From positions 1-24,372 of IMG/VR virus record IMGVR_UViG_3300023223_000147: a DNA stretch of 24,372 nucleotides; one strand, 5' to 3'. The stretch's first letter is position 1. Each line of letters begins with the position of its first letter. The notes under the pieces are model-generated. The model had not been told where the DNA came from and did not search any database. It saw only the letters and a program-made list of their open reading frames with translations. Shown piece after piece: positions 861 to 21,214 of the stretch. Source of the DNA: a virus. The translations under genes and the position numbers were made by a program.

Positions 861-1784
861 ATGACTCTTGTAAAAGCTCTTGTCACCTCGGCTGAGGTAG
901 CTACAGCCAAGAATGGTAACACTTTCCTCCGCATAGGGTATAATGTGAAGGAAGGTAACTCTATTGTATCTAAGTCCTCTGTCTATTTCGACAATGGTAA
1001 GCTGGACCCCTCTGTGATATCAGGTCAGGTCTGCATGATTGACGAGCAGGAGTCCACTTATCAGGGTAAACCCTCTTCCAAGATAGCTAGCATAAGTGCC
1101 TGTCCCCCTGGTCAGAACAATCCTGATGAGTTTGTCAAGAAGTCCGTTCTGGAAACCAAGGCTATGTGGACTGAGCTGCATGGCTACTTCAATGCTATTA
1201 ACGTGGCTGAGATAAAGGGTGTGGTGACTGAGATTGTCTTCAATGGTCATGCTGCTTCTTTCGAGAAGTGGCCAGCTGCACGAGGTATTCACCATGCTTT
1301 TGAAGGTGGCCTCCTTCAACATACCCTGATGATGTTACGTATCGCCGGGTTCACCATGCAGCATGATGTGTCCTATCAGAAGTGTGACAAGGGTATTGTT
1401 TATGCTGCAATTATGCTTCATGACGTAGGTAAGGTCTATGAGTATGACGTTGACCCCGTGAAGGGAGTCACCTTCTCCATGCTCGGTAGTCTGCTGGGTC
1501 ATATTGTCATTGCTGATGAACTGATAGTGGCAGCAGCTAACAGTCTGGGTTATCTTACTAAGGATGGTCCTCTTCTCCATCTACGCCACTGTGTCCTATC
1601 CCACCACTCCAAGCTTGAATGGGGCAGCCCCGTTACCCCGAAGACTATCGAGGCTAACCTCGTCCATTTGGTCGACATGATTGACGGCAAGGGTCAAGCA
1701 TGTGAATCTGTGCTCGAAGGTGTTGAGCCAGGTGGTGAGTCTGCCTTCAACAAGGGTGTTGGTGGATCACTCTTCAAGCTTTAA
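861..1784 (+). CDS. YhaM-like OB-fold/HD-domain 3'-5' exonuclease
   Basis: The 307-residue protein matches the architecture of Bacillus YhaM, a metal-dependent 3'-5' exoribonuclease that also acts on single-stranded DNA. An N-terminal OB-fold (about residues 1-85) binds nucleic acid and a C-terminal HD domain (about 140-285) cleaves it. Visible metal-ligand motifs are IHHAFEGGLLQHT (143-155), MLHDVGK (185-191), LGHIVI (212-217), LSHHSKLEWGSP (246-257) and a late VDMID. All metal-ligand histidines and aspartates of the HD domain appear intact. It starts two bases after thyX and ends the operon; a promoter for the next gene overlaps the region just after its stop. In a phage it could degrade host RNA to recycle nucleotides or trim RNA ends. 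That role is inference; the family call is firm. Confidence 0.88.
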   Translation: MTLVKALVTSAEVATAKNGNTFLRIGYNVKEGNSIVSKSSVYFDNGKLDPSVISGQVCMIDEQESTYQGKPSSKIASISACPPGQNNPDEFVKKSVLETKAMWTELHGYFNAINVAEIKGVVTEIVFNGHAASFEKWPAARGIHHAFEGGLLQHTLMMLRIAGFTMQHDVSYQKCDKGIVYAAIMLHDVGKVYEYDVDPVKGVTFSMLGSLLGHIVIADELIVAAANSLGYLTKDGPLLHLRHCVLSHHSKLEWGSPVTPKTIEANLVHLVDMIDGKGQACESVLEGVEPGGESAFNKGVGGSLFKL

Positions 1785-4835: not shown

Positions 4836-6884
4836 ATGGCTAAGCAGGGTCGTACAAAGTATGAGACAGACCTTGTTGCGGCCAAGCCGGTCGAGAACTG
4901 GAAGTCTCTGGCTAAGTTCACACAGATTACATCTGTGGCCCACCTCCGTACCATCTATGATGCTTATGTGGCCCTTGGCTGCCCTGAGCTGGCAGTTGAC
5001 ACTGAAACCACATCCCTGTCTATCATTGATCTAGACCTAGTAGGTATATCTTTCTGCTTTGAGATGAAAGAGGCTTTCTACCTGCCTCTGAAGCACCGTG
5101 TTGGTATGAACGCTGTGCGTGATGATGTTGAGATGAAGGAAGCCCTCGACATGATCTACGACATGGTTTACAGCTCGCAACGGTCGCTCTGGTTCAACTG
5201 CTCTTATGACTTTCGTGTCCTCCGTAAGTTTGGGATGGATGCTCTGAAGACCAAGCATCTGGATGTGATGGATCTGGTCTGGAACCTTGACACTAACATC
5301 AATATGCCCTCGCTGGATAAGTCCACCAAGTACCATTTGGGCATTGATATGCCATCCTATGCTGAGACCGCGGGCAAGGTGATCGACTTCTCCTACCTGG
5401 ACCCCGATGAGGCCACTGTTTATGCAGCTTCTGATGCTTGGGCTACCTATTTACTCAAGATGAGGTTCAACGACTACTTCGAGCGTGTGAAGTTCATTAT
5501 TGAGGTGGACTCTGAGCTTAAGCGTGCCATGATGTATTTGGAAGAGACTCCTATTTACATCAGTGCTGAGAGGGCTGATCAGCTGCGCAAGGATACCGAA
5601 GCTGAGATGACTATTCTGCTGAAGGAGATGTTTGAGCTGGCGGGTACCGAGTTTAAGCCTGGCTCTCCTGCCCAAGTGGTTTCTGTGTTCCAGTCTTGTG
5701 GTGTTCCCATGTCTGTGACCACTGCAAAGGGTGCCTACTCTACGGCTGAGGATGCAGTCAAGCCCTTCGAGAAGGACCACCCCATAGTCAAGAAGCTGCT
5801 GCATTATCGTGGGTTGGAGAAGAAGCTTGGTTCGTATATCATGCCGTTCCTGCAGAGTGACTCGGGCACCATCAAGATCGAGTACAAGCTGAATGCTGCT
5901 CCGACTGCACGCCTTGCCTCTGGAGCTAAGAACAAGAGGATGAAGGGCACTAAGATGTTCCTGCCCTACAACATCCAGTCCACAATCAAGCCTGAACCAG
6001 GGTATTTCACGGTGGCCCAAGGAAATGGTGAGCACTCGGTACTGGGCTATAACTTCACGCACTGTGAGAAGGGTACTCCCAATGCTCTTGAAGGCTACTG
6101 CATGAAGAACGTGAGGCGCCTGTTCTGCCCTCATCCTGACCATTATCTGCTTTCCATTGACTACGATGCTGAGGAACTCCGGATATGTGGTAACCTGACT
6201 GGTGACCGTGCGTTCCTTGATGCCTTCGTGAATGGTGAAGACCCACACACTGCTACCGCCAAGGCCATGTTTGAGGAGTACGACAAGGCTATCCGTAAGA
6301 TCTGTAAGGAGTGTAACTTTGGCCTGATCTACCTCGGTAATGCTTGGACCTTGAAGGGCCGGCTTGATGACAAGACCATCGAGGAGTGTGAGATATTCTA
6401 CGACTTGTGGCACAAGATCCACTTCCAGCACATGAACTATGTCCGCTCATCCGCTGCAGCTGGCAAGAAGGATGGTTATGTCACCACTATGTTAGGCCGC
6501 ATCCGAAGGGTGGCTGCCTACTATCAGTCCCCAAGCAGGAAGGATTGGGCCTTCGCTGACCGTACCGTGATTAATACCCAGATTCAGGGTCTTGCTGCTG
6601 ACATCATGCGCCTGGTGCTGGTCCGTCTGTTCCGCGAGGTATTCCTGAACCCCGACTATGCGGGCAAGGTCCATTTCGTAGCCAGTGTTCATGACGAGAT
6701 TGACCTGTCTGTCACGAAGGACCCCGCATGGTTTACTGTGATTGCTGAGCATGTCATGCGTATTATGACTGAGTTACCATTCAATTGGGAAGTACCCCTT
6801 ACAGTGTCTGCGTCTGTAGGTCCTGACTGGGGCATGCTCTTTCCCTTCCAGCTAGAGAATGGTGTTTGGACCCCCGGAGAGTAG
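4836..6884 (+). CDS. polA: Family A DNA polymerase with 3'-5' exonuclease
   Basis: A complete 682-residue Pol I-type replicase without a 5' nuclease domain. The proofreading domain has Exo I DTET (residues 55-58), Exo II NCSYDFRVL (121-129) and Exo III YAASD (196-200). The polymerase domain has TARLASG (357-363), motif A IDYDAEELR (D442, E447), motif B RKICKECNFGLIY (R487, K491, F495, Y499) and motif C VHDE (H619, D620, E621), so both catalytic carboxylates are present. Two oddities are seen. Motif B reads FGLIYLGN where the family has FGxxYG, so the Gly is shifted by one. About 45 residues carrying H400, H409, C410 and C422 are inserted before motif A. It should be the phage replicase. A second, shorter family A polymerase lies at 8637. 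Confidence 0.95.
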   Translation: MAKQGRTKYETDLVAAKPVENWKSLAKFTQITSVAHLRTIYDAYVALGCPELAVDTETTSLSIIDLDLVGISFCFEMKEAFYLPLKHRVGMNAVRDDVEMKEALDMIYDMVYSSQRSLWFNCSYDFRVLRKFGMDALKTKHLDVMDLVWNLDTNINMPSLDKSTKYHLGIDMPSYAETAGKVIDFSYLDPDEATVYAASDAWATYLLKMRFNDYFERVKFIIEVDSELKRAMMYLEETPIYISAERADQLRKDTEAEMTILLKEMFELAGTEFKPGSPAQVVSVFQSCGVPMSVTTAKGAYSTAEDAVKPFEKDHPIVKKLLHYRGLEKKLGSYIMPFLQSDSGTIKIEYKLNAAPTARLASGAKNKRMKGTKMFLPYNIQSTIKPEPGYFTVAQGNGEHSVLGYNFTHCEKGTPNALEGYCMKNVRRLFCPHPDHYLLSIDYDAEELRICGNLTGDRAFLDAFVNGEDPHTATAKAMFEEYDKAIRKICKECNFGLIYLGNAWTLKGRLDDKTIEECEIFYDLWHKIHFQHMNYVRSSAAAGKKDGYVTTMLGRIRRVAAYYQSPSRKDWAFADRTVINTQIQGLAADIMRLVLVRLFREVFLNPDYAGKVHFVASVHDEIDLSVTKDPAWFTVIAEHVMRIMTELPFNWEVPLTVSASVGPDWGMLFPFQLENGVWTPGE

Positions 6885-6886
6885 TG

Positions 6887-7123
6887 ATGGTTGAGCCTTA
6901 TCCTGGGTCTAAGCCCTTGTGTCCGAAGTGTGGGAGTTCTGTTCTTAGGTATGATGTGTTGGTTGATGGTGAGGGTGATCCAGAGTACACGTGGTGTCAG
7001 TTCTGCGGTCATAATTGGCCCGCTGGTGAGGTGTATATTAGGCCTGTAGTCCCTGTAGAACATATTGTAGTTACTCTAGTGTTGACTGACGCTGAGATTG
7101 AGGAGCTAGATGTCGATTCGTAA
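6887..7123 (+). CDS. Zinc-ribbon protein, 78 aa
   Basis: A 78-residue protein starting two bases after the polymerase stop, behind GGAG at 6876-6879. It has CPKCG (residues 12-16) and WCQFCGHNW (about 36-44), a two-CxxC zinc ribbon, then a beta-rich acidic tail (EHIVVTLVLTDAEIEELD). The ribbon suggests nucleic-acid or protein binding. Its position right behind the polymerase suggests a replication accessory role, which is not proven. It overlaps the next gene by 14 bases. Confidence 0.7.
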   Translation: MVEPYPGSKPLCPKCGSSVLRYDVLVDGEGDPEYTWCQFCGHNWPAGEVYIRPVVPVEHIVVTLVLTDAEIEELDVDS

Positions 7124-7343
7124 GGTTTTCTTTAAGATGCTGAAGGCTATCCTTTGTGTTCTTCACCTTCGCAGGCATGAGTATATGAAGAAGGTGCATG
7201 GTGAGCTGGTGACTGACCTTGAGTTGGCCATTGCTGCTCTTGAGAACTTCCCCATTGAGGTCAAGGATGATGGCTCCCGTTGGGTGTATGACCTGATCTG
7301 TAAGAACTGTGGTGCTATCAAGGGATTCCGAGGTGCCAAATGA
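7110..7343 (+). CDS. Hypothetical protein, 77 aa
   Basis: The start at 7110 is supported by GAGGAG at 7099-7104 inside the previous gene. The 77-residue product has a basic amphipathic N-terminus (SIRKVFFKMLKAILCVLHLRRHEY), a helical middle (LELAIAALENFP) and one Cys pair, CKNCG, near residues 67-71. With a single CxxC, any zinc site would need dimerisation or other ligands. It ends with an ATGA overlap into the following membrane protein. Function unknown. Confidence 0.6.
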   Translation: MSIRKVFFKMLKAILCVLHLRRHEYMKKVHGELVTDLELAIAALENFPIEVKDDGSRWVYDLICKNCGAIKGFRGAK

Positions 7344-7603
7344 GCTTGTCCTCAAGGATAGTGGGTACGGGTATAATTCTTACCATAGCTGTAGCTGTTG
7401 GTATTCTCATTGGCCGGCTTATGGAGGTCCGATCCCTTGACCTAGCTGTGGACGCTGGAGTCCTCAGATGGAGTGGCAAGGACTATATTATTACGGAGTG
7501 GCAAGATGCCCCAGAAGAGAAGACCGTTAGTCCCCCTGAGAAGAGTTCAAGGGGGAAAGAAGAGGTCACCCCGCAGACCCCCATTGAGCGCTATGCAGAG
7601 TGA
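7340..7603 (+). CDS. Single-pass membrane protein, 87 aa
   Basis: The protein has a clear N-terminal transmembrane helix at about 8-27 (VGTGIILTIAVAVGILIGRL), a short globular region (LDLAVDAGVLRWSGKDYIITEW) and a charged Pro/Lys/Glu-rich tail that is likely disordered. The start overlaps the upstream stop (ATGA) and the end overlaps the next gene by 11 bases. I do not recognise it. Confidence 0.65.
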   Translation: MSLSSRIVGTGIILTIAVAVGILIGRLMEVRSLDLAVDAGVLRWSGKDYIITEWQDAPEEKTVSPPEKSSRGKEEVTPQTPIERYAE

Positions 7604-7781
7604 CCCTCCTAGTCCTATGGACATGGTTGAAGAGCTGCTTGAGCTCACCTCTCATGTGAATGACTATGAAGAGGGTCTACTGTACAGTCTGCAGAAGCGG
7701 TTGTCGGAAGGCCATTCTCTGTCCCCCGCGCAAGATGCCAAGCTTGAGGAGATATACGAACGTGTTCACTCATCGGAATAG
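7593..7781 (+). CDS. Small helical acidic protein, 62 aa
   Basis: The frame is open from 7473, but its upstream part is the shadow of the preceding membrane protein. The ATG at 7593 gives a compact 62-residue product of two amphipathic helices (MDMVEELLELTSHVNDYEEG and SPAQDAKLEEIYERVHSSE). Its helix-turn-helix-like hairpin resembles small phage regulators but has no recognisable DNA-binding signature. The ribosome-binding site is weak; 7617 is the alternative start. It overlaps the HAD gene by 20 bases. Confidence 0.55.
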   Translation: MQSDPPSPMDMVEELLELTSHVNDYEEGLLYSLQKRLSEGHSLSPAQDAKLEEIYERVHSSE

Positions 7782-8223
7782 GTTTGTTGATGGTATTATT
7801 CGGCAGCGTAAGTGTCGTGTTGCTGTTGACTTTGATAACACTATGTGCATCTGTGAGGCGGGTAAGTGGCCTGACGTTGAGCTGTATCCTGGGGTAGTGG
7901 AGTCCCTGGTTGATATTAACCGGATGGGTTATCTTCTGTATGTGCTGACAGGTCGTCCTGAAGGTAAGGCTCAGGATATGGTGCGGGAGTTTCTTGCCAA
8001 GAGTGAGGTATTGTCTCGCCTCATTATAGAGGTAACCAATGTTAAGCATCCCGACACTATTCTGATTATTGATGATCGTGCGTATCGTTTTAATGGTAAC
8101 TGGGACCTGGCACTCCCTGAGGTTAAGATCATATTGAACTGGCATGAGACCTGTGCCGACAGTATGTCGGATGAGGACTTTGCAACTGTTAAAGACCCAA
8201 CTAAGCTGGATGAGGAGAAGTGA
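7762..8223 (+). CDS. HAD-superfamily phosphohydrolase
   Basis: A 153-residue cytosolic phosphatase-like protein. HAD motif I is VDFDNT (residues 22-27, nucleophile D23 and acid/base D25), motif II is LTGR (T63) and motif IV is IIDDRAYRF (D104, D105). The cap is minimal. Similar small phage HAD proteins act on nucleotides or polynucleotide 3' ends, but the substrate cannot be read from sequence. The GTG at 7762 is chosen because GAGGAG lies at 7747-7752 and it keeps all motifs. The frame extends further upstream to 7660, but that part overlaps the previous gene completely and looks non-coding (many Arg/Cys). The stop overlaps the next start (TGATG). Confidence 0.82.
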   Translation: MFTHRNRFVDGIIRQRKCRVAVDFDNTMCICEAGKWPDVELYPGVVESLVDINRMGYLLYVLTGRPEGKAQDMVREFLAKSEVLSRLIIEVTNVKHPDTILIIDDRAYRFNGNWDLALPEVKIILNWHETCADSMSDEDFATVKDPTKLDEEK

Positions 8224-8393
8224 TGACTGCTCCTCTGAAGGACTCAAAGCAAACGGTGCTGGACCTGCGCTTTCAGTTGGCTCAGTGTGTTGGTGCTTTA
8301 AGAGCTATTTCCTGGTCACCTCGCTCCTTTAGGGTTAAGGGAGTTGAAGAGCTTGCGGATGAATCGGAGCGTTTACTTAAGAAGGTGAGGTAG
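8223..8393 (+). CDS. Small helical protein, 56 aa
   Basis: ATG at 8223 overlaps the HAD stop (TGATG) and follows GAGGAG at 8213-8218. The 56-residue basic, helical product begins MTAPLKDSKQTVLDLRFQLA and ends ESERLLKKVR, with one Cys and two short amphipathic helices. The next gene starts two bases after its stop. Not recognised; the tight spacing on both sides supports it as a real gene. Confidence 0.65.
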   Translation: MTAPLKDSKQTVLDLRFQLAQCVGALRAISWSPRSFRVKGVEELADESERLLKKVR

Positions 8394-8395
8394 TA

Positions 8396-8647
8396 ATGGA
8401 TTTAACACGGGATGAGAGGGCTATGGTTGTGGCTGGTCTGGAGCTGCTGATGACAGTGGCTCATAACAGTCCAACCGAGACTGGTGCTGAGTTTGAAGCA
8501 GCTGATGACCGGGCTAGGTCTGCCCAAAGTCTGAAGACTCGGCTCTTAGCGGAGATAGAAGAGACTGAACTTGAAGAGGCACAAGAACGTATCTTAGAAG
8601 AGATTAAGGACCGCCAGTCACATCCGGAGGACAGCTTTGAAGTTTGA
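8396..8647 (+). CDS. Acidic helical protein, 83 aa
   Basis: An 83-residue, strongly acidic all-helical protein. Residues 1-22 and 36-73 form amphipathic helices, the second very Glu-rich (LLAEIEETELEEAQERILEE). There is no cysteine or membrane segment. It starts two bases after the preceding stop (TAGTAATG) and overlaps the second polymerase gene by 11 bases, whose Shine-Dalgarno GGAGG lies inside it. Translational coupling to that polymerase suggests a possible accessory role, which is unproven. Confidence 0.65.
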   Translation: MDLTRDERAMVVAGLELLMTVAHNSPTETGAEFEAADDRARSAQSLKTRLLAEIEETELEEAQERILEEIKDRQSHPEDSFEV

Positions 8648-9773
8648 CGTAGAACCCCTGCTCGATACCGTCCTTAGCATTGATGTCAAGAAGTTCTATG
8701 CGAACTGGGATGCCCTTAAGTGCAAGATCGCTTCGGGTCAGGTGAAGGTCAACGAGGCTGCTGGCTTCTCCTGCAATGTGGGCTCGGCCATCAATCTGAC
8801 TGCCTGGTTGATTACTGATCTAGGTCTTGAGCCCCAGTATACCAAGAAGAAGTCCACCCGCAAGAAGCACCCATCCTTTGCCAAAGAGGTCTTGACTGCG
8901 TATGATACGCCCGAGACCCTCATGGTTATTGAGCAGAAGTCACTCCTGGCCACGGATAAGTGCTTCCGGTATACCGAGCCCCACATTGAGCGTGACGGGC
9001 ATGAAGCTTGGCTGACTTATGAAATACAGCCCGAGTCCACTACTGGCAGGGTGTATGGCAAGGCTCCCCCTATTCACTCGACTATCGCTGAGATACGAGA
9101 GTGCATTATCCCTGACACTGATAGGCATACCTTCGTCAATGGTGACTATCGTGCGCAGGAGCTGTGTATCGCTGCTTCTATCTGTGGCTGTCAGTCTCTG
9201 ATTGACGACATCCAGAATGAGATCGATGTGATGGCTCGACTGGTGGCTGGCTCTTGGAGCCGCGAGCAGGTGAAGACTGCTATCTATGCGTTCCTGTATG
9301 GTTCCACCCCTGGCAATATGGCCTACACTCTGAACAAGACGAAGGTGGAGATTGATGCCTTCCTGACCCGGTTCTTCACTGCCTACCCTGGCATGGAGAA
9401 GTGGATGGAGGTCCGCAAGACTGTGGAAGAACGCGGTTATGCGGAGACGATCTTTGGTGATCGGTACACCCTCGACCTCACCAACGTGGATAGTGAAGAA
9501 GAGATTCGCCGGGCTGTGAACTTCATATGTCAAGGGTCTGCTGCAGGTGTACTTTTCCGGGCTATGCAGGTTCTTGCCAAGATACCTGGTTACAAGGTTA
9601 AGGTACCGACCTTTGATGCCTTGTTGGTTCAAGTGCCCAACTCGGACGTATCAAGTCATATCCAGACGATCAAGGATGCATTTGATGGCGTACTTCCAGG
9701 TGTCCTAAGCGCAAAAGTGACCTCGGGTAGTAATTGGTGCGAAGCATGGAAGCCTACCGCTGTGGCTGCTTAA
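8637..9773 (+). CDS. Second, short family A polymerase-like protein with altered motif C
   Basis: A 378-residue protein equivalent to only the polymerase domain of Pol I. It shows TGRVYGKAPP (136-145, the TGRLSS region), motif A NGDYRAQELC (D170, E175), motif B REQVKTAIYAFLYG (R209, K213, Y217, Y221) and an O-helix-following NFICQGSAAG (295-304). Motif C is TFDALL, so the usual HDE has become F326-D327-A328; in the QGxAAD motif the Asp is Gly, and the ELR Arg of motif A is Cys. Both metal-binding aspartates remain. There is no exonuclease domain. The TTG start has GGAGG six bases upstream (8626-8630). It may be a low-activity, specialised or regulatory paralogue of the polymerase at 4836. It is not a simple fragment, because its start and stop are intact and it diverges from that gene. 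Confidence 0.88.
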   Translation: MKFDVEPLLDTVLSIDVKKFYANWDALKCKIASGQVKVNEAAGFSCNVGSAINLTAWLITDLGLEPQYTKKKSTRKKHPSFAKEVLTAYDTPETLMVIEQKSLLATDKCFRYTEPHIERDGHEAWLTYEIQPESTTGRVYGKAPPIHSTIAEIRECIIPDTDRHTFVNGDYRAQELCIAASICGCQSLIDDIQNEIDVMARLVAGSWSREQVKTAIYAFLYGSTPGNMAYTLNKTKVEIDAFLTRFFTAYPGMEKWMEVRKTVEERGYAETIFGDRYTLDLTNVDSEEEIRRAVNFICQGSAAGVLFRAMQVLAKIPGYKVKVPTFDALLVQVPNSDVSSHIQTIKDAFDGVLPGVLSAKVTSGSNWCEAWKPTAVAA

Positions 9774-9791
9774 ACATTCTAAGGACTGACC

Positions 9792-10478
9792 ATGCCGGAA
9801 GCTGACAGTGGCTTTGGTGAAGCTAGCCTCACCAGAGAAGGTGGTTACACCCTGGACCATCTGAAGAAGGCCAAGTTTCAAGCACACCCCGTATTCCTGG
9901 ACCTGAAGAATACTCCCCACACCCTCAGAAAGTTACCTAAGTCTACATCTTGCTTGTGTGATCGATTGAACCTTACCGGACCCCCGGTTCTACCTTCGGG
10001 GCCAACGGATGCTGAGGTTATGATCATTGGCAGAGACCCTGGCGAGCTCGACTGCGAGCACAGTATCCCCTTTCACCCCGAATCCTCTGGAGGCAGGACG
10101 CTTGACGAACACTATTTACCCGCCCTTGGTCTGACTCGTGAAGAGGTCTACATCACCAATGTTCTGTTTTGTCGTGGCGCAAGCAACAAACCCCCTACTC
10201 ATGCTGAAAAGTCAGCTTGCTACAACCTTCATACTTCTGAATTCAAAGCCCTCAAGAAACTTAAATACATCTTCCCTCTCGGCACTGATGCCTTTATTAT
10301 GATAACTAACATTTACTCTTCCATCTCACCTTATATCGGACAGTATCTCGAAACAGACATCTACTCTTCTAAGAGTGTTAAGATAATCCCTATACACCAC
10401 CCCGGATACTCCTCAAGAAGTGAAGAAATACTAAGTGATATGTTAACTATCCTTAGGAAGATGTCAGGATTGGAGTGA
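9792..10478 (+). CDS. Family 4-like uracil-DNA glycosylase
   Basis: A 228-residue uracil-DNA glycosylase superfamily protein, which removes uracil from DNA. The water-activating motif region is IIGRDPGE (78-85). ITNVLFCR (121-128) and the LGTDAF strand (163-168) fit the core. The late motif is IHHPGYSSR (201-209), in place of the usual HPS/HPA. Four cysteines, C54, C56, C127 and C143, sit where family 4 enzymes hold a 4Fe-4S cluster, though the first pair is CxC rather than CxxC. Residues 1-45 are an extra N-terminal region. The start follows AAGGA at 9780-9784. It is separate in style from its neighbours: more C and A on the coding strand and more AAA lysine codons, which suggests a different origin. 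Its likely job is repair of, or defence against, dUMP in DNA. Confidence 0.82.
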   Translation: MPEADSGFGEASLTREGGYTLDHLKKAKFQAHPVFLDLKNTPHTLRKLPKSTSCLCDRLNLTGPPVLPSGPTDAEVMIIGRDPGELDCEHSIPFHPESSGGRTLDEHYLPALGLTREEVYITNVLFCRGASNKPPTHAEKSACYNLHTSEFKALKKLKYIFPLGTDAFIMITNIYSSISPYIGQYLETDIYSSKSVKIIPIHHPGYSSRSEEILSDMLTILRKMSGLE

Positions 10479-10482
10479 GCTT

Positions 10483-10638
10483 ATGAGTGACTCTATCTGT
10501 GACGTCTGTAGTAACACCATGCCCGAGGATGAGGCTTACGCGTGCAAGGTGTGTGGCCGTACAGTCTGCCCGTCGTGTTTGGCTGGTGATAGTGATGACA
10601 CATGCGTAGACTGTGTAGGAGGTAAGACTGATGGCTAA
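10483..10638 (+). CDS. Eight-cysteine double zinc-finger miniprotein, 51 aa
   Basis: ATG at 10483 begins a 51-residue protein carrying four CxxC pairs: CDVC, CKVC, CPSC and CVDC. The spacing is that of a cross-braced RING/FYVE-like or B-box-like fold holding two zinc ions. It ends after the next gene has already begun (8-base overlap). The order of pairs and the tiny size make it easy to miss. Function unknown; protein-protein interaction is most likely for such folds. Confidence 0.7.
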   Translation: MSDSICDVCSNTMPEDEAYACKVCGRTVCPSCLAGDSDDTCVDCVGGKTDG

Positions 10639-10984
10639 ACGTCGTGCAGTTGATGATCCTAATGTTAAGAAGATGGGCTTCTGGAATACAGATGATCCAG
10701 AAGAGGTGCGGAAGCACCGCAAGGATAAGGACTGGGACCTCATCACTGCTGTCTTGGCATTCATGAATGCTGCGTCAGCTAATGCCAGTTATCGTGGCAC
10801 CGCACGTTGTCGCTTGTGTGGTGACCGCCTTGGCGGTAGTGACATGCTTACTCCTGATGGTAAGTGGGTCTTCCCTGCAGGATGGGAGCACTATATCGTG
10901 CAGCATGGACTTGCTCCTACTGATGATGAGTTTGGTAGTGCTGCAGAGTCCTGGTTTAAGACTGTTCGAGAGTCTTGGGAGTAG
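10631..10984 (+). CDS. Hypothetical zinc-site protein, 117 aa
   Basis: A 117-residue basic-to-acidic protein with a single probable metal site, CRLCG (residues 60-64) followed by DGKWVFPAGWEHYIVQHGL. The CxxCG...DG...P.G..HY...H arrangement gives two Cys and two His, a plausible zinc site; I recall similar motifs in bacterial and phage proteins of unknown function. The N-terminus (KRRAVDDPNVKKMGFW) is charged. It overlaps the eight-cysteine gene by 8 bases and is followed three bases later by another Cys-rich protein. Confidence 0.7.
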   Translation: MAKRRAVDDPNVKKMGFWNTDDPEEVRKHRKDKDWDLITAVLAFMNAASANASYRGTARCRLCGDRLGGSDMLTPDGKWVFPAGWEHYIVQHGLAPTDDEFGSAAESWFKTVRESWE

Positions 10985-12975: not shown

Positions 12976-13677
12976 GTGGATAATCCTATTATTGTGGCCC
13001 TTGATGGCCTGGACTTTGACGAAGCCGTGGACATGGCTGACCGTCTTATGGATCTGGTATGGGGCTTCAAGGTGAACTCCTTGTTCTACGATGGGGGCGT
13101 TGACGTAGTTAATGCTTTAAGTGAGAAGGGCCGTGTTATGCTGGATCTCAAGTGGCATGACATTCCGAACACGGTTACTAACTGGGCTCAGGAGGCTAAG
13201 AACCAGCCTTATATTCCTGATATTGTGACTGTTCATGCCTCTGGTGGTGTTGACATGATGAAGGCTGCGGTTAACGTCTTGCCGGATAAGGTAGCCGCCG
13301 TTACAGTCTTGACCTCTCTGGATGCCGGGGAGTGTACTGGTATCTATGGAACCTATGTTGAGGGAGCTGTTGGCCGCCTTGCTCGTAAGGCTGCTGATGC
13401 TGAGGTAGCGTATATTGTGTGTAGTGCAAATGACCTGGCCTACGAGTGCTTTGATAGGGCGCAGCAGTCCTCAATGTATGCTTGTGCTCACATTCCCAAG
13501 ATTACACCTGGCATTCGTCCTGAGTGGTATCAGAAGAAGGATGATCAGCGTAGAGTAATGACTCCGGCGCAAGCAATGGAAGCTGGTGCCACGTACCTTG
13601 TTATTGGCCGTCCTATTGTCCAAGCTGACAATCCACAGGATGCGGCTAAGAGAACCTTTGAGGAGATACAATCATGA
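12976..13677 (+). CDS. pyrF: Orotidine 5'-phosphate decarboxylase PyrF
   Basis: PyrF converts OMP to UMP, the last step of de novo pyrimidine synthesis. The 233-residue TIM-barrel protein keeps the catalytic set: K32 (GFKVN), and D57, K59 and D62 in LDLKWHDIPNT. The phosphate-binding loops follow: VTVHASGG (84-91), PKITPGIRPEW (about 174-184) and YLVIGRPIVQADNP (near residue 212). Length is normal for bacterial enzymes, so it is likely active. The GTG start follows GGAG at 12967-12970. It lies 1.2 kb upstream of a phosphoribosyltransferase of orotate type, which would supply its substrate, and both lie in one long operon. Phage copies of pyrF are uncommon. Confidence 0.93.
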   Translation: MDNPIIVALDGLDFDEAVDMADRLMDLVWGFKVNSLFYDGGVDVVNALSEKGRVMLDLKWHDIPNTVTNWAQEAKNQPYIPDIVTVHASGGVDMMKAAVNVLPDKVAAVTVLTSLDAGECTGIYGTYVEGAVGRLARKAADAEVAYIVCSANDLAYECFDRAQQSSMYACAHIPKITPGIRPEWYQKKDDQRRVMTPAQAMEAGATYLVIGRPIVQADNPQDAAKRTFEEIQS

Positions 13678-14461: not shown

Positions 14462-14907
14462 CTGCTAAGTGTGTTCTCATGGACTGGGTGATGGAACTTC
14501 CTATCAGGTATCAGGGCACGCTGTTGACTGCTGTTCGTGGATGTGATACCGCACCGAAGGAGGATGTAAGCAAGCGTCTGTCTCGCATGATTCGTGGTGC
14601 CTTCCTCAACACAGTGGATGATGTCCGGACCTTTGTTGAGTACCCGAGGCACACCTCTGAGCTGAAGTACGTGATCAAGGCCTTTTACAAGGACTGTGAT
14701 CAGTATCCTCATCACTTTGTCATGCACATCGTATTTGCACTTGGTATCCTGGGCTACAAGCTACCTGATGTCCCTATGCGGAAGGCATGGAGACAGGGTT
14801 ATGAGGCATTCTGCAAGTCTATGCACCTTGCTCCTGAGTCTCCTGAAGAGATGGACCGTCGCTTGACTCAGTCTGAGGATGACAAGATCGAAGAGGAGGC
14901 TTCGTAA
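14458..14907 (+). CDS. Conserved-looking helical protein, 149 aa
   Basis: A 149-residue helical protein starting MTAKCVLMDWVMELPIRYQG. The sequence MDWVMELPIRYQGTLLTAVR, followed by CDTAPKED, reads like a conserved block of a phage protein family I have met without a known function; this is a recollection, not a match. The middle is helical, with FYKDCDQYPHHFVMHIVFAL near residue 82, and the tail is acidic. It is coupled to the membrane gene upstream (ATGA) and to the phosphoribosyltransferase downstream (TAATG). Confidence 0.68.
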   Translation: MTAKCVLMDWVMELPIRYQGTLLTAVRGCDTAPKEDVSKRLSRMIRGAFLNTVDDVRTFVEYPRHTSELKYVIKAFYKDCDQYPHHFVMHIVFALGILGYKLPDVPMRKAWRQGYEAFCKSMHLAPESPEEMDRRLTQSEDDKIEEEAS

Positions 14908-15614
14908 TGGGGCACTGTATGGAAGAATCTGATCTGGTTGAGTTCCTGACAAGGAAGGACTCTTTTTGGAAGTGGGATGGCCATAAGTATGTGGCTGAAC
15001 TGACCTCCGGTAAGTTGTCTGACTTCTTTGCCAACTTGACTCCTATCTTTACTGTTCCTTTCTTTCAGGAGAGGGTCGGCACTGCTCTTGCTAACAAGTA
15101 TTGGAAGGATGATGACAGTGCTATGCAGTTGAACAATCTGCCCTTTAATTCATGGGTTGTGGGCTCTGCAATGGGTAGTATTGGCCTGGCTCAGTCTGTG
15201 TGTAAGGGAATCATCGGCTATGGCTGTAAGAACATTCGTGCTGCCTTTACTGAGAAGAAGATCACGTCTTGGGAATATCTGGATCGTTATGAGTCGGTTA
15301 TGGAGCTGAAGAGGTTTGACCTTGGTAAGGAACCCTTTGTTATTCTGATAGAGGATGTGACGACTACAGGTAAGACTAGTCAGCAGACTCATGATGCTAT
15401 ACTTGCTAAGCATCCAGATGCTGAGTTCTCTAGGATAGTCTTGTCTGTGATTGATCGCTCTGTTACCCCTTTGTGGTGTGGCTTTGTGACCTCTCTCATG
15501 AAGGTAGAACCACAAGTCTGGGACTCACTTGCTGATCTGCCTGCTCATATGAGGGAGTGTATTCCTCTCCGACCTAAGGCTAATTGGAAAGCTCTTGTAG
15601 AGACAATGCTGTGA
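14907..15614 (+). CDS. Phosphoribosyltransferase, probably orotate type (PyrE-like)
   Basis: A 235-residue type I phosphoribosyltransferase. The PRPP-binding motif is VILIEDVTTTGKTS (145-158), close to the VVEDVxTTGxS form of orotate phosphoribosyltransferase, with a VGSAMGSIGLA segment (85-95) as the small PP-loop region. N-terminal WDGHKYVAELTSGKLSDFF (23-41) matches the substrate-binding HxSGxHSD..F region of PyrE. The enzyme would make OMP from orotate and PRPP, the step before PyrF, whose gene is 1.2 kb upstream in the same operon. The family is clear. Orotate specificity is inferred from motif shape and gene context; another nucleobase is possible. It overlaps the neighbouring genes at both ends (TAATG, GTGA). 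Confidence 0.82.
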   Translation: MGHCMEESDLVEFLTRKDSFWKWDGHKYVAELTSGKLSDFFANLTPIFTVPFFQERVGTALANKYWKDDDSAMQLNNLPFNSWVVGSAMGSIGLAQSVCKGIIGYGCKNIRAAFTEKKITSWEYLDRYESVMELKRFDLGKEPFVILIEDVTTTGKTSQQTHDAILAKHPDAEFSRIVLSVIDRSVTPLWCGFVTSLMKVEPQVWDSLADLPAHMRECIPLRPKANWKALVETML

Positions 15615-18939: not shown

Positions 18940-19298
18940 GGGGGTGAAATGGTATCGACAGGTTGCACCTGTTGACGCTTTGCGTGCCGTGGATGGGTAG
19001 TTGGCCACGTTAATCATCTACCTAACTTGTTACCTGCCAAAGCCAAGAGCTTTGCACCGCGGAAGGTGTTCGCACCTCTCGCCGTCGCTGCCTAAGCGAT
19101 GTAACCAAAGAAAGGCCCTCCCTCCTCCGGCTGCTCGCCGAAGATGGTTGTATGTGGTGAGCTGACAGAGGGAAAGACCCCGTCCAGTGGTTCGTCGTTA
19201 TCCCTGGGACGTTAAACGGAGAAACCGGCTACGCACGTGAAATGAGGGCGTTGATGAGGCAATACTGCACCCCGGTTCGATTCCGGGCACCTCCACCA
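18940..19298 (+). ncRNA. ssrA: tmRNA (SsrA)
   Basis: A 359-nucleotide transfer-messenger RNA, which frees stalled ribosomes and tags the unfinished protein. The 5' end GGGGGTG (18940-18946) pairs with CACCTCC (19288-19294), giving the third-pair G-U wobble that alanyl-tRNA synthetase reads. TGGTATCGAC matches the conserved 5' region. The T-arm is CCCGG-TTCGATT-CCGGG (19271-19287) and the 3' end ACCA (19295-19298) is encoded. The tag frame most likely resumes at GCC 19036 (A at position -4) and ends at TAA 19093-19095, encoding AKAKSFAPRKVFAPLAVAA. The AVAA end is a normal protease-recognised tag tail. A resume at 19042 is the alternative. No smpB gene is seen in the window. Confidence 0.95.
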
Positions 19299-20338: not shown

Positions 20339-20860
20339 ATGACCGACATCCGTTCTAAGCGATGCGTCTTCGTCTCCCACTGTATGCTGGCTCAGGGTAT
20401 TATGGCCGAGGGTGTGGTCAAGAAGTTCCCTGCTATGGTCAAGCCCGTTATCCAGTTCTGCATGGATCACGATATTAACATGTTTCAGATGCCTTGTCCT
20501 GAGACCCTTTGTGCTGAAGGCGGTCTTGGCCGCCCTACTCATGGTAAGAAGTGGTATGAGGCACACGGCCTGCCTGAGACTGCTAGAGTGATAGCTGAGG
20601 GCCAGGTTAAATACATGCGTGATCTGACTGCGCAGGGGTTCGAGATCCTGGCTATTATAGGGGTGGACTTCTCCCCTGCTTGCGCTGTAAGCTACTTGAA
20701 CAGAGGCAGGTCTACGGTCCCCGGTGAAGGGATCTATGTTGAGGCTCTAAAGGTAGTTATGGAGAAGCACGGACTGAAGGTCCCCTTCCTTGGTGTGACT
20801 GCGAAGTGGCATAAGAAGATGCAGCGTGATCTGAATGCTTTGATAGGTGTCCTCTGCTAG
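20339..20860 (+). CDS. TudS-related (DUF523/CD3072-like) Fe-S desulfidase-like protein
   Basis: A 173-residue protein that resembles the TudS/DUF523 group, whose characterised members (thiouracil desulfurases) remove sulfur with a 4Fe-4S cluster held by three cysteines. The three matching sites are HCMLAQG (C15), MPCPETLC followed by GGLGRPTHGKKWYE (C53 and the GGL loop at 61-63), and GVDFSPACAVSY (C115). The rest is alpha/beta, with a KYMRDLTAQGFEILAIIGV core strand-helix. The closest relatives I recall are annotated as CD3072-family TudS-related putative desulfidases; the substrate is unknown. It starts 13 bases after tRNA-Asn behind AAGGA (20329-20333). It is followed by an Fe-S carrier gene, which fits a need for cluster delivery. 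Confidence 0.75.
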   Translation: MTDIRSKRCVFVSHCMLAQGIMAEGVVKKFPAMVKPVIQFCMDHDINMFQMPCPETLCAEGGLGRPTHGKKWYEAHGLPETARVIAEGQVKYMRDLTAQGFEILAIIGVDFSPACAVSYLNRGRSTVPGEGIYVEALKVVMEKHGLKVPFLGVTAKWHKKMQRDLNALIGVLC

Positions 20861-20869
20861 GGGTTTACT

Positions 20870-21214
20870 ATGTCTGTTGATCTAACTGAGAAAGCTGCTG
20901 CTGAGGTTGCTCGCATTATGAAGGAGCAGTCTCTTGATCCTGCCACGAGCTACCTTAGGTTTGGTATACAGGGCGGTGGTTGCAGTGGATTCGAGTATGT
21001 CCTTGGCTTTGTGGACTCCTTCTCTGTTCCTGATGTGGATAAGGATGCATTGCTTGAGTCTAGAGGCGTAAAGATATTGTCGGATGAGAAGTCTCTTGAG
21101 ATGGCTGATGGCACTGAGATTGACTTCGAGTCTGACGTTATGAACCGTAAGTTTGTCTTCAATAACCCCAAGGCCTCTCGCTCTTGCGGCTGTGGAACCT
21201 CTTTCTCGGTGTAG
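20870..21214 (+). CDS. A-type Fe-S cluster carrier (IscA/ErpA/SufA family)
   Basis: A 114-residue HesB-like protein of normal length. It binds and hands over Fe-S clusters through three conserved cysteines: C38 in GGGCSGFEY, and C106 and C108 in SCGCGTSF at the C-terminus. All are present. Phages carry such genes occasionally, and the reason is usually unclear. Here it sits directly after a TudS-like protein that needs a cluster and 2.6 kb before a radical SAM protein. A dedicated carrier for those two is a reasonable inference. ErpA versus IscA versus SufA cannot be decided from the sequence. Confidence 0.93.
   Translation: MSVDLTEKAAAEVARIMKEQSLDPATSYLRFGIQGGGCSGFEYVLGFVDSFSVPDVDKDALLESRGVKILSDEKSLEMADGTEIDFESDVMNRKFVFNNPKASRSCGCGTSFSV

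What the first reader, a model, noticed from the sequence alone, without database searches (positions are those of the whole stretch)
4836..9773. Two family A DNA polymerases in one locus, the second with altered motif C
The gene at 4836 is a normal replicase with proofreading. The gene at 8637 has only the polymerase domain. It keeps the two metal-binding aspartates (D170, D327), but motif C HDE is FDA, QGxAAD ends in Gly, and the motif A ELR Arg is Cys. Such loss with retained core residues suggests a specialised or regulatory polymerase, perhaps for primer handling, translesion synthesis or as a structural partner.
Basis: partly seen in the sequence, partly recalled or inferred. Interest (0 to 1): 0.7.

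Follow-up and report, generated by a model that had tools for sequence, protein, structure and literature searches.

The report
Second, proofreading-free phage DNA polymerase
This uncultivated phage fragment carries a normal DNA-copying enzyme plus a second, stripped-down one that keeps the chemistry of its active site but has changed residues thought to feel the freshly made DNA, and it sits directly beside a uracil-repair gene; extra polymerases of this general kind are already known in phages, so it is an unusual variant rather than a new kind.

Summary
P1 (4836-6884) is an exo+pol family A polymerase with motif C HDE. P2 (8637-9773) is an intact pol-only family A protein with motif C TFDA, ELC and QGSAAG. 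P2 is an orphan: no relative above about 28-29% identity was found. The changes do not mark a dead enzyme. Seven positions are invariant in 87 other PolAs (R668, D705, E710, K758, Q849, H881, D882, Klenow numbering); P2 keeps six and loses only His881. E883 is Ser or Ala in 10 of 87 and R712 is Cys in 3 of 87. The further losses (N675, Q677, N678, H881) are minor-groove DNA contacts by my knowledge of Klenow structures, not catalytic residues. A close parallel exists: the published accessory phage polymerase divPolA1 has motif C [TVIL]-YDA in every member aligned here, a feature I did not see reported. Kinship of P2 to divPolA1 could be neither shown nor excluded. A family-4-like uracil-DNA glycosylase gene starts 18 bp after P2; such domains are fused or adjacent to PolA in five other viral loci. 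Best reading: an active, non-proofreading accessory polymerase, plausibly for uracil-repair gap filling. The structural-partner idea is weakly supported; primase or bypass roles are untested.

The parts
4836..6884 (+). P1: family A DNA polymerase with 3'-5' exonuclease, 682 aa, motif C HDE
   Evidence: Pfam DNA_pol_A 9.6e-61, DNA_pol_A_exo1 7.1e-10; PHROG 17 6.7e-84; exo motifs DTET, NCSYDF, YAASDA
8396..8647 (+). 83-aa ORF overlapping the start of P2 by 11 bases, no family match
8626..8631 (+). Shine-Dalgarno GGAGGA, 5 nt before the TTG start of P2
   Evidence: sequence
8637..9773 (+). P2: polymerase-only family A protein, 378 aa
   Evidence: Pfam 1.5e-34; AlphaFold2 pLDDT 86, pTM 0.83; Taq/Bst/Klenow fold, TM 0.69-0.76 by query length
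9048..9050 (+). R138 (Klenow R668), retained
9066..9086 (+). PPIHSTI in place of PNLQNIP (N675P, Q677H, N678S, P680I)
   Evidence: N675 81/87, Q677 86/87 in others
9144..9167 (+). Motif A DYRAQELC: D170 (D705), E175 (E710) kept; R712 is C177
9261..9299 (+). O helix R209 (R754), K213 (K758), Y217 (F762), Y221 (Y766)
9531..9548 (+). QGSAAG: Q299 (Q849) kept, D854 is G304
9609..9620 (+). Motif C TFDA: V880T, H881F, D882 kept (D327), E883A
9792..10478 (+). Uracil-DNA glycosylase superfamily protein, family-4-like, motif 1 GRDPG
   Evidence: Pfam UDG 9.6e-16; TIGR00758 8.9e-24, below its cut-off; PDB 1ui0 3e-13

Best explanation
P2 is a catalytically competent, non-proofreading accessory family A DNA polymerase of a phage-like virus, used beside the exo+ P1 for short repair-type synthesis. 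I think it most likely fills gaps after uracil removal begun by the glycosylase encoded directly after it. Shown: a complete thumb-palm-fingers domain (model), retained catalytic residues, no exonuclease, the adjacent glycosylase gene.
For: P2 keeps six of the seven positions invariant in 87 other PolAs, plus R754, Y766, R841 and N845; it keeps all seven residues that are strictly invariant across the 64-sequence alignment (R138, D170, E175, K213, G274, Q299, D327). A confident Pol I fold is predicted. E883 is Ser/Ala in 10 of 87 PolAs, and phage Tt72 polymerase with natural Ser there is active; S616A keeps 76% activity while D384A and D615A keep 4% (PMC9324360). Klenow H881A is antimutator (Minnick 1999, cited in PMC4773887); apolar substitutions of motif C Gln/His raise mismatch selectivity in Taq (PMC4011760). 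UDG starts 18 bp after P2; UDG is fused to PolA in L060, L015 and L023 and adjacent in L084 and L027.
Against: No biochemistry. H881 is invariant in 87 other PolAs, so the combined changes may cost more than single mutants. The glycosylase has lost the motif 1 Glu (GRDPG instead of GEGPG) and may be inactive, which would weaken the uracil-repair reading. Adjacency in one fragment is weak; no close relatives exist to show conserved linkage. The window is a 24 kb fragment.
Confidence: 0.45

Rival explanations
1. P2 is a primase-like A-family polymerase that starts DNA chains with an SSB partner, as CCPol-MP of SCCmec does.
For: Same build: polymerase domain without active exonuclease and almost the same catalytic positions (CCPol D169/E174/D324 against P2 D170/E175/D327; PMC7581432). 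Short last thumb helix in the P2 model, the feature proposed to make room for an initiating nucleotide (PMC10061031).
Against: The short spacing occurs in about a fifth of ordinary viral PolAs, exo+ ones included. No OB-fold/SSB or helicase gene was recognised next to P2. TV-Pols are reported never to be linked to nuclease domains and to sit with helicases or recombinases (PMC2579912).
Confidence: 0.15
2. P2 is a diverged member of the divPolA1 family, a replication-linked second PolA.
For: divPolA1 also lacks an active exonuclease, accompanies a regular DNAP, and has motif C [TVIL]-YDA, matching TFDA, with Q677 and N678 also lost. Holding P2 with divPolA1 in the careful tree gives a likelihood 4.5 higher and is not rejected, p-AU 0.63.
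Against: divPolA1 has lost E710 and R754 and part of the fingers; P2 keeps all. P2 is closer in sequence to ordinary Pol I (E 1e-16 to 1e-19) than to divPolA1 (phmmer 0.0012). The free tree separates divPolA1 with 100/100. Long branches make both results unsafe. The genes downstream differ.
Confidence: 0.12
3. P2 is catalytically dead and acts as a structural or regulatory partner of P1.
For: Loss of an otherwise invariant His and of several DNA-contact residues.
Against: All metal ligands and nucleotide-binding residues are kept, which is not expected after release from catalytic selection; no evidence of a P1-P2 interface was obtained.
Confidence: 0.1
4. P2 is a decaying gene, or its odd residues are assembly errors.
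For: It is an orphan on a long branch and no read data were available.
Against: Open over 378 codons, SD-preceded start, in-frame codon usage like the neighbours, full-length fold model; TTTGATGCC would need several independent base errors to arise from a His-Asp-Glu codon run.
Confidence: 0.06

Closest known systems
divPolA1 (Flavobacterium phage immuto group, PMC11348598)
   Same: Extra PolA beside a regular DNAP, no active exonuclease, aromatic-Asp-Ala in motif C
   Different: divPolA1 lost E710 and R754 and part of the fingers, has an inactivated exo remnant, and sits in a RecA/helicase/RNR gene block; P2 has a full Pol I fold and a UDG neighbour
divPolA2 (barbaviruses and Vibrio phage 1.063.O, PMC11348598)
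   Same: Extra PolA beside a regular DNAP, repair role suggested
   Different: divPolA2 has an unrelated N-terminal domain in place of the thumb and weak PolA similarity (44.7 bits); P2 has a normal thumb
CCPol-MP primase / TV-Pol (PMC7581432, PMC10061031, PMC2579912)
   Same: Pol domain with the catalytic Asp pair, no proofreading, similar size
   Different: No SSB partner or helicase recognised near P2; P2 scores strongly with Pfam DNA_pol_A
UDG-PolA fusions of viruses (L060, L015, L023 here)
   Same: Family-4-like UDG coupled to a PolA
   Different: There the PolA has motif C HDS and is the only PolA of its record; here UDG is a separate gene beside the second PolA
Bacterial DNA polymerase I (Klenow/Taq large fragment)
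   Same: Thumb-palm-fingers fold, catalytic residues; best BLAST similarity 26-28%
   Different: No exonuclease domain; H881F, E883A, PNLQN lost

Membership tests
Family A DNA polymerase (PolA, PF00476) | Significant profile match over the polymerase domain | tested here: met
   1.5e-34, residues 26-368
Family A DNA polymerase (PolA, PF00476) | Two metal-binding Asp, R668, E710, RxxxK, Q849 | tested here: met
Family A DNA polymerase (PolA, PF00476) | Motif C His-Asp (typical, not strictly defining: divPolA1 departs here too) | tested here: not met
   FDA; His in 87 of 87 others; divPolA1 has Tyr
divPolA1 | Sequence similarity to divPolA1 above that to ordinary PolA | tested here: not met
divPolA1 | Aromatic-Asp-Ala in motif C | tested here: met
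   TFDA against [TVIL]-YDA
divPolA1 | Common ancestry in a tree | tested here: inconclusive
   free tree separates them, constraint not rejected p 0.63
divPolA2 | Thumb replaced by an unrelated N-terminal domain | tested here: not met
   P2 model aligns to Taq/Bst/Klenow over about 400 columns
CCPol/TV-Pol primase | OB-fold SSB partner or D5-type helicase gene adjacent | tested here: not met
   neighbours are an unmatched 83-aa ORF and a UDG; the fold of the 83-aa protein was not predicted
CCPol/TV-Pol primase | Primer-independent synthesis | not testable with these tools
   needs protein
Family 4 UDG (neighbour gene) | Curated family cut-off TIGR00758 | tested here: not met
   84.1 bits against cut-off 125.3

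The most novel reading that the evidence does not exclude
Extra, exonuclease-free PolAs of phages have at least twice arrived at an aromatic-Asp-Ala motif C with loss of minor-groove contacts (divPolA1 and P2), a natural counterpart of engineered motif C mutants: an active site tuned to refuse mismatched primer ends in place of proofreading, here coupled to uracil excision.
Probability: 0.2. Interest if true: 0.65.

Novelty: new variant of a known kind. Interest (0 to 1): 0.42.

Why it matters
The motif C His is near-universal in family A polymerases, and mutagenesis says it helps check the primer end. It also adds a case to the small list of phages that carry a second PolA, with a full Pol I fold and a repair-gene neighbour.

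Tried and rejected
Close relatives of P2 by peptide patterns in IMG/VR, GTDB genomes, a P2+divPolA1 profile, and a degenerate DNA pattern requiring QGxAA plus [FY]DA at P2 spacing in IMG/VR and genomes: none. Close relatives of P1 in IMG/VR: none. A short last thumb helix as a primase marker was rejected as non-diagnostic. Quick-tree clade tests were uninformative: every constraint tried gave a higher likelihood than the short free search. The first DNA pattern had a spacing slip and found nothing in the window, corrected.

Full report
Observation. The window is a 24,372-base virus record with dense plus-strand genes. P1 at 4836-6884 encodes 682 aa with an exonuclease and a polymerase domain; P2 at 8637-9773 encodes 378 aa with the polymerase domain only. 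P2 begins at TTG with a good Shine-Dalgarno, and its codon usage fits the neighbouring genes only in its own frame.

How odd is P2? I aligned P1 and P2 with 87 other PolAs: 80 IMG/VR loci plus phage-collection loci. Motif C is HDE in 77, HDS in 8 and HDA in 2; so Ala or Ser at E883 is ordinary. R712 is Cys in 3. The D854 position also varies. By contrast His881 is present in all 87, Q677 in 86 and N675 in 81; P2 has Phe, His and Pro. P2 keeps R668, D705, E710, R754, K758, Y766, R841, N845, Q849 and D882, and has Tyr at F762. In a 64-sequence alignment every strictly invariant residue is kept by P2.

What the pattern means. From established knowledge of Klenow/Bst structures (not tested here), N675, Q677, N678 and H881 belong to the set that touches the minor groove of the new duplex. 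Published work: in phage Tt72 polymerase the E883 position is naturally Ser, and S616A keeps 76% activity against 4% for the two catalytic Asp mutants (PMC9324360). Klenow H881A is antimutator (Minnick 1999, cited in PMC4773887). [quoted passage not shown] So P2 is more likely an active enzyme with altered DNA sensing than a dead one. The model of P2 is confident (pLDDT 86) and matches Taq, Bst and Klenow.

Relatives. No close relative of P2 was found in IMG/VR, phage records, plasmids or GTDB genomes; the best matches are ordinary Pol I at 24-28% identity. Among 53 IMG/VR PolA records outside the divPolA1 group none shows a second PolA gene (many are fragments), whereas 9 of 10 IMG/VR divPolA1 records and the immuto phage show two. 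The published divPolA1 family (PMC11348598) has motif C [TVIL]-YDA in all 16 representatives aligned, which parallels TFDA; [quoted passage not shown] divPolA1 however lost E710 and R754 and part of the fingers. The free tree places P2 on a long branch outside divPolA1, but a common clade is not rejected and is slightly more likely. I therefore call kinship open and convergence possible.

Neighbourhood. A family-4-like uracil-DNA glycosylase gene starts 18 bp after P2 (Pfam 9.6e-16; TIGR00758 8.9e-24 but below cut-off). Its motif 1 is GRDPG rather than GEGPG, so its activity is uncertain. Coupling of UDG with viral PolA is a recurring theme: fused in L060, L015 and L023, adjacent in L084 and L027. 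This makes a repair role the leading guess for P2, at modest confidence.

Alternatives. A primase-like role as in CCPol-MP (PMC7581432) fits the size and the lack of proofreading, but no SSB or helicase neighbour was recognised and the thumb-helix marker is not specific. A structural role is not excluded but is not favoured by the retained catalytic set. Decay or error is unlikely.

Verdict. Observation confirmed; interpretation partly supported; an unusual variant of a known kind of accessory phage polymerase.

Noticed in passing
L089:1-1323, L108-L187, L188, L189: The divPolA1 family has motif C [TVIL]-YDA, plus E710 to His and R754 to Tyr in most members, across the representatives aligned, and is widespread (312 IMG/VR matches to one query).
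   Followed up: partly
window 18940-19298: A complete tmRNA gene (Rfam 104 bits) with predicted tag AKAKSFAPRKVFAPLAVAA, followed by tRNA-Met and tRNA-Asn, on a viral fragment.
   Followed up: partly
window 9759-9770: P2 ends in ...TAVAA; its last four residues AVAA equal the end of the predicted tmRNA tag, a possible ClpXP-type degron. None of the other 13 genes checked ends this way.
   Followed up: no
window 12976-13677 and 14907-15614: Orotidine-5'-phosphate decarboxylase and a weak orotate phosphoribosyltransferase match, with ThyX at 37-858: a pyrimidine nucleotide gene set.
   Followed up: no
window 861-1784: YhaM-like HD-domain 3'-5' exoribonuclease homologue (NF010007 3.8e-43, below cut-off) next to thyX.
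   Followed up: no
window 20339-21214: TudS-related desulfidase and an iron-sulphur assembly (Fe-S_biosyn) protein gene next to each other after the tRNA-Asn.
   Followed up: no
L018:8375-9163 and 9575-10876: A virus with what looks like the 3'-5' exonuclease and polymerase of PolA split into two adjacent ORFs.
   Followed up: partly
L091 (MW353176 38958-40175): The regular PolA of Flavobacterium phage immuto has motif C HDQ, another E883 change in a presumably active enzyme.
   Followed up: no
window 4836-6884: P1 has an unusually long stretch (83 against a median of 33 residues) between the TxR arginine and motif A.
   Followed up: no
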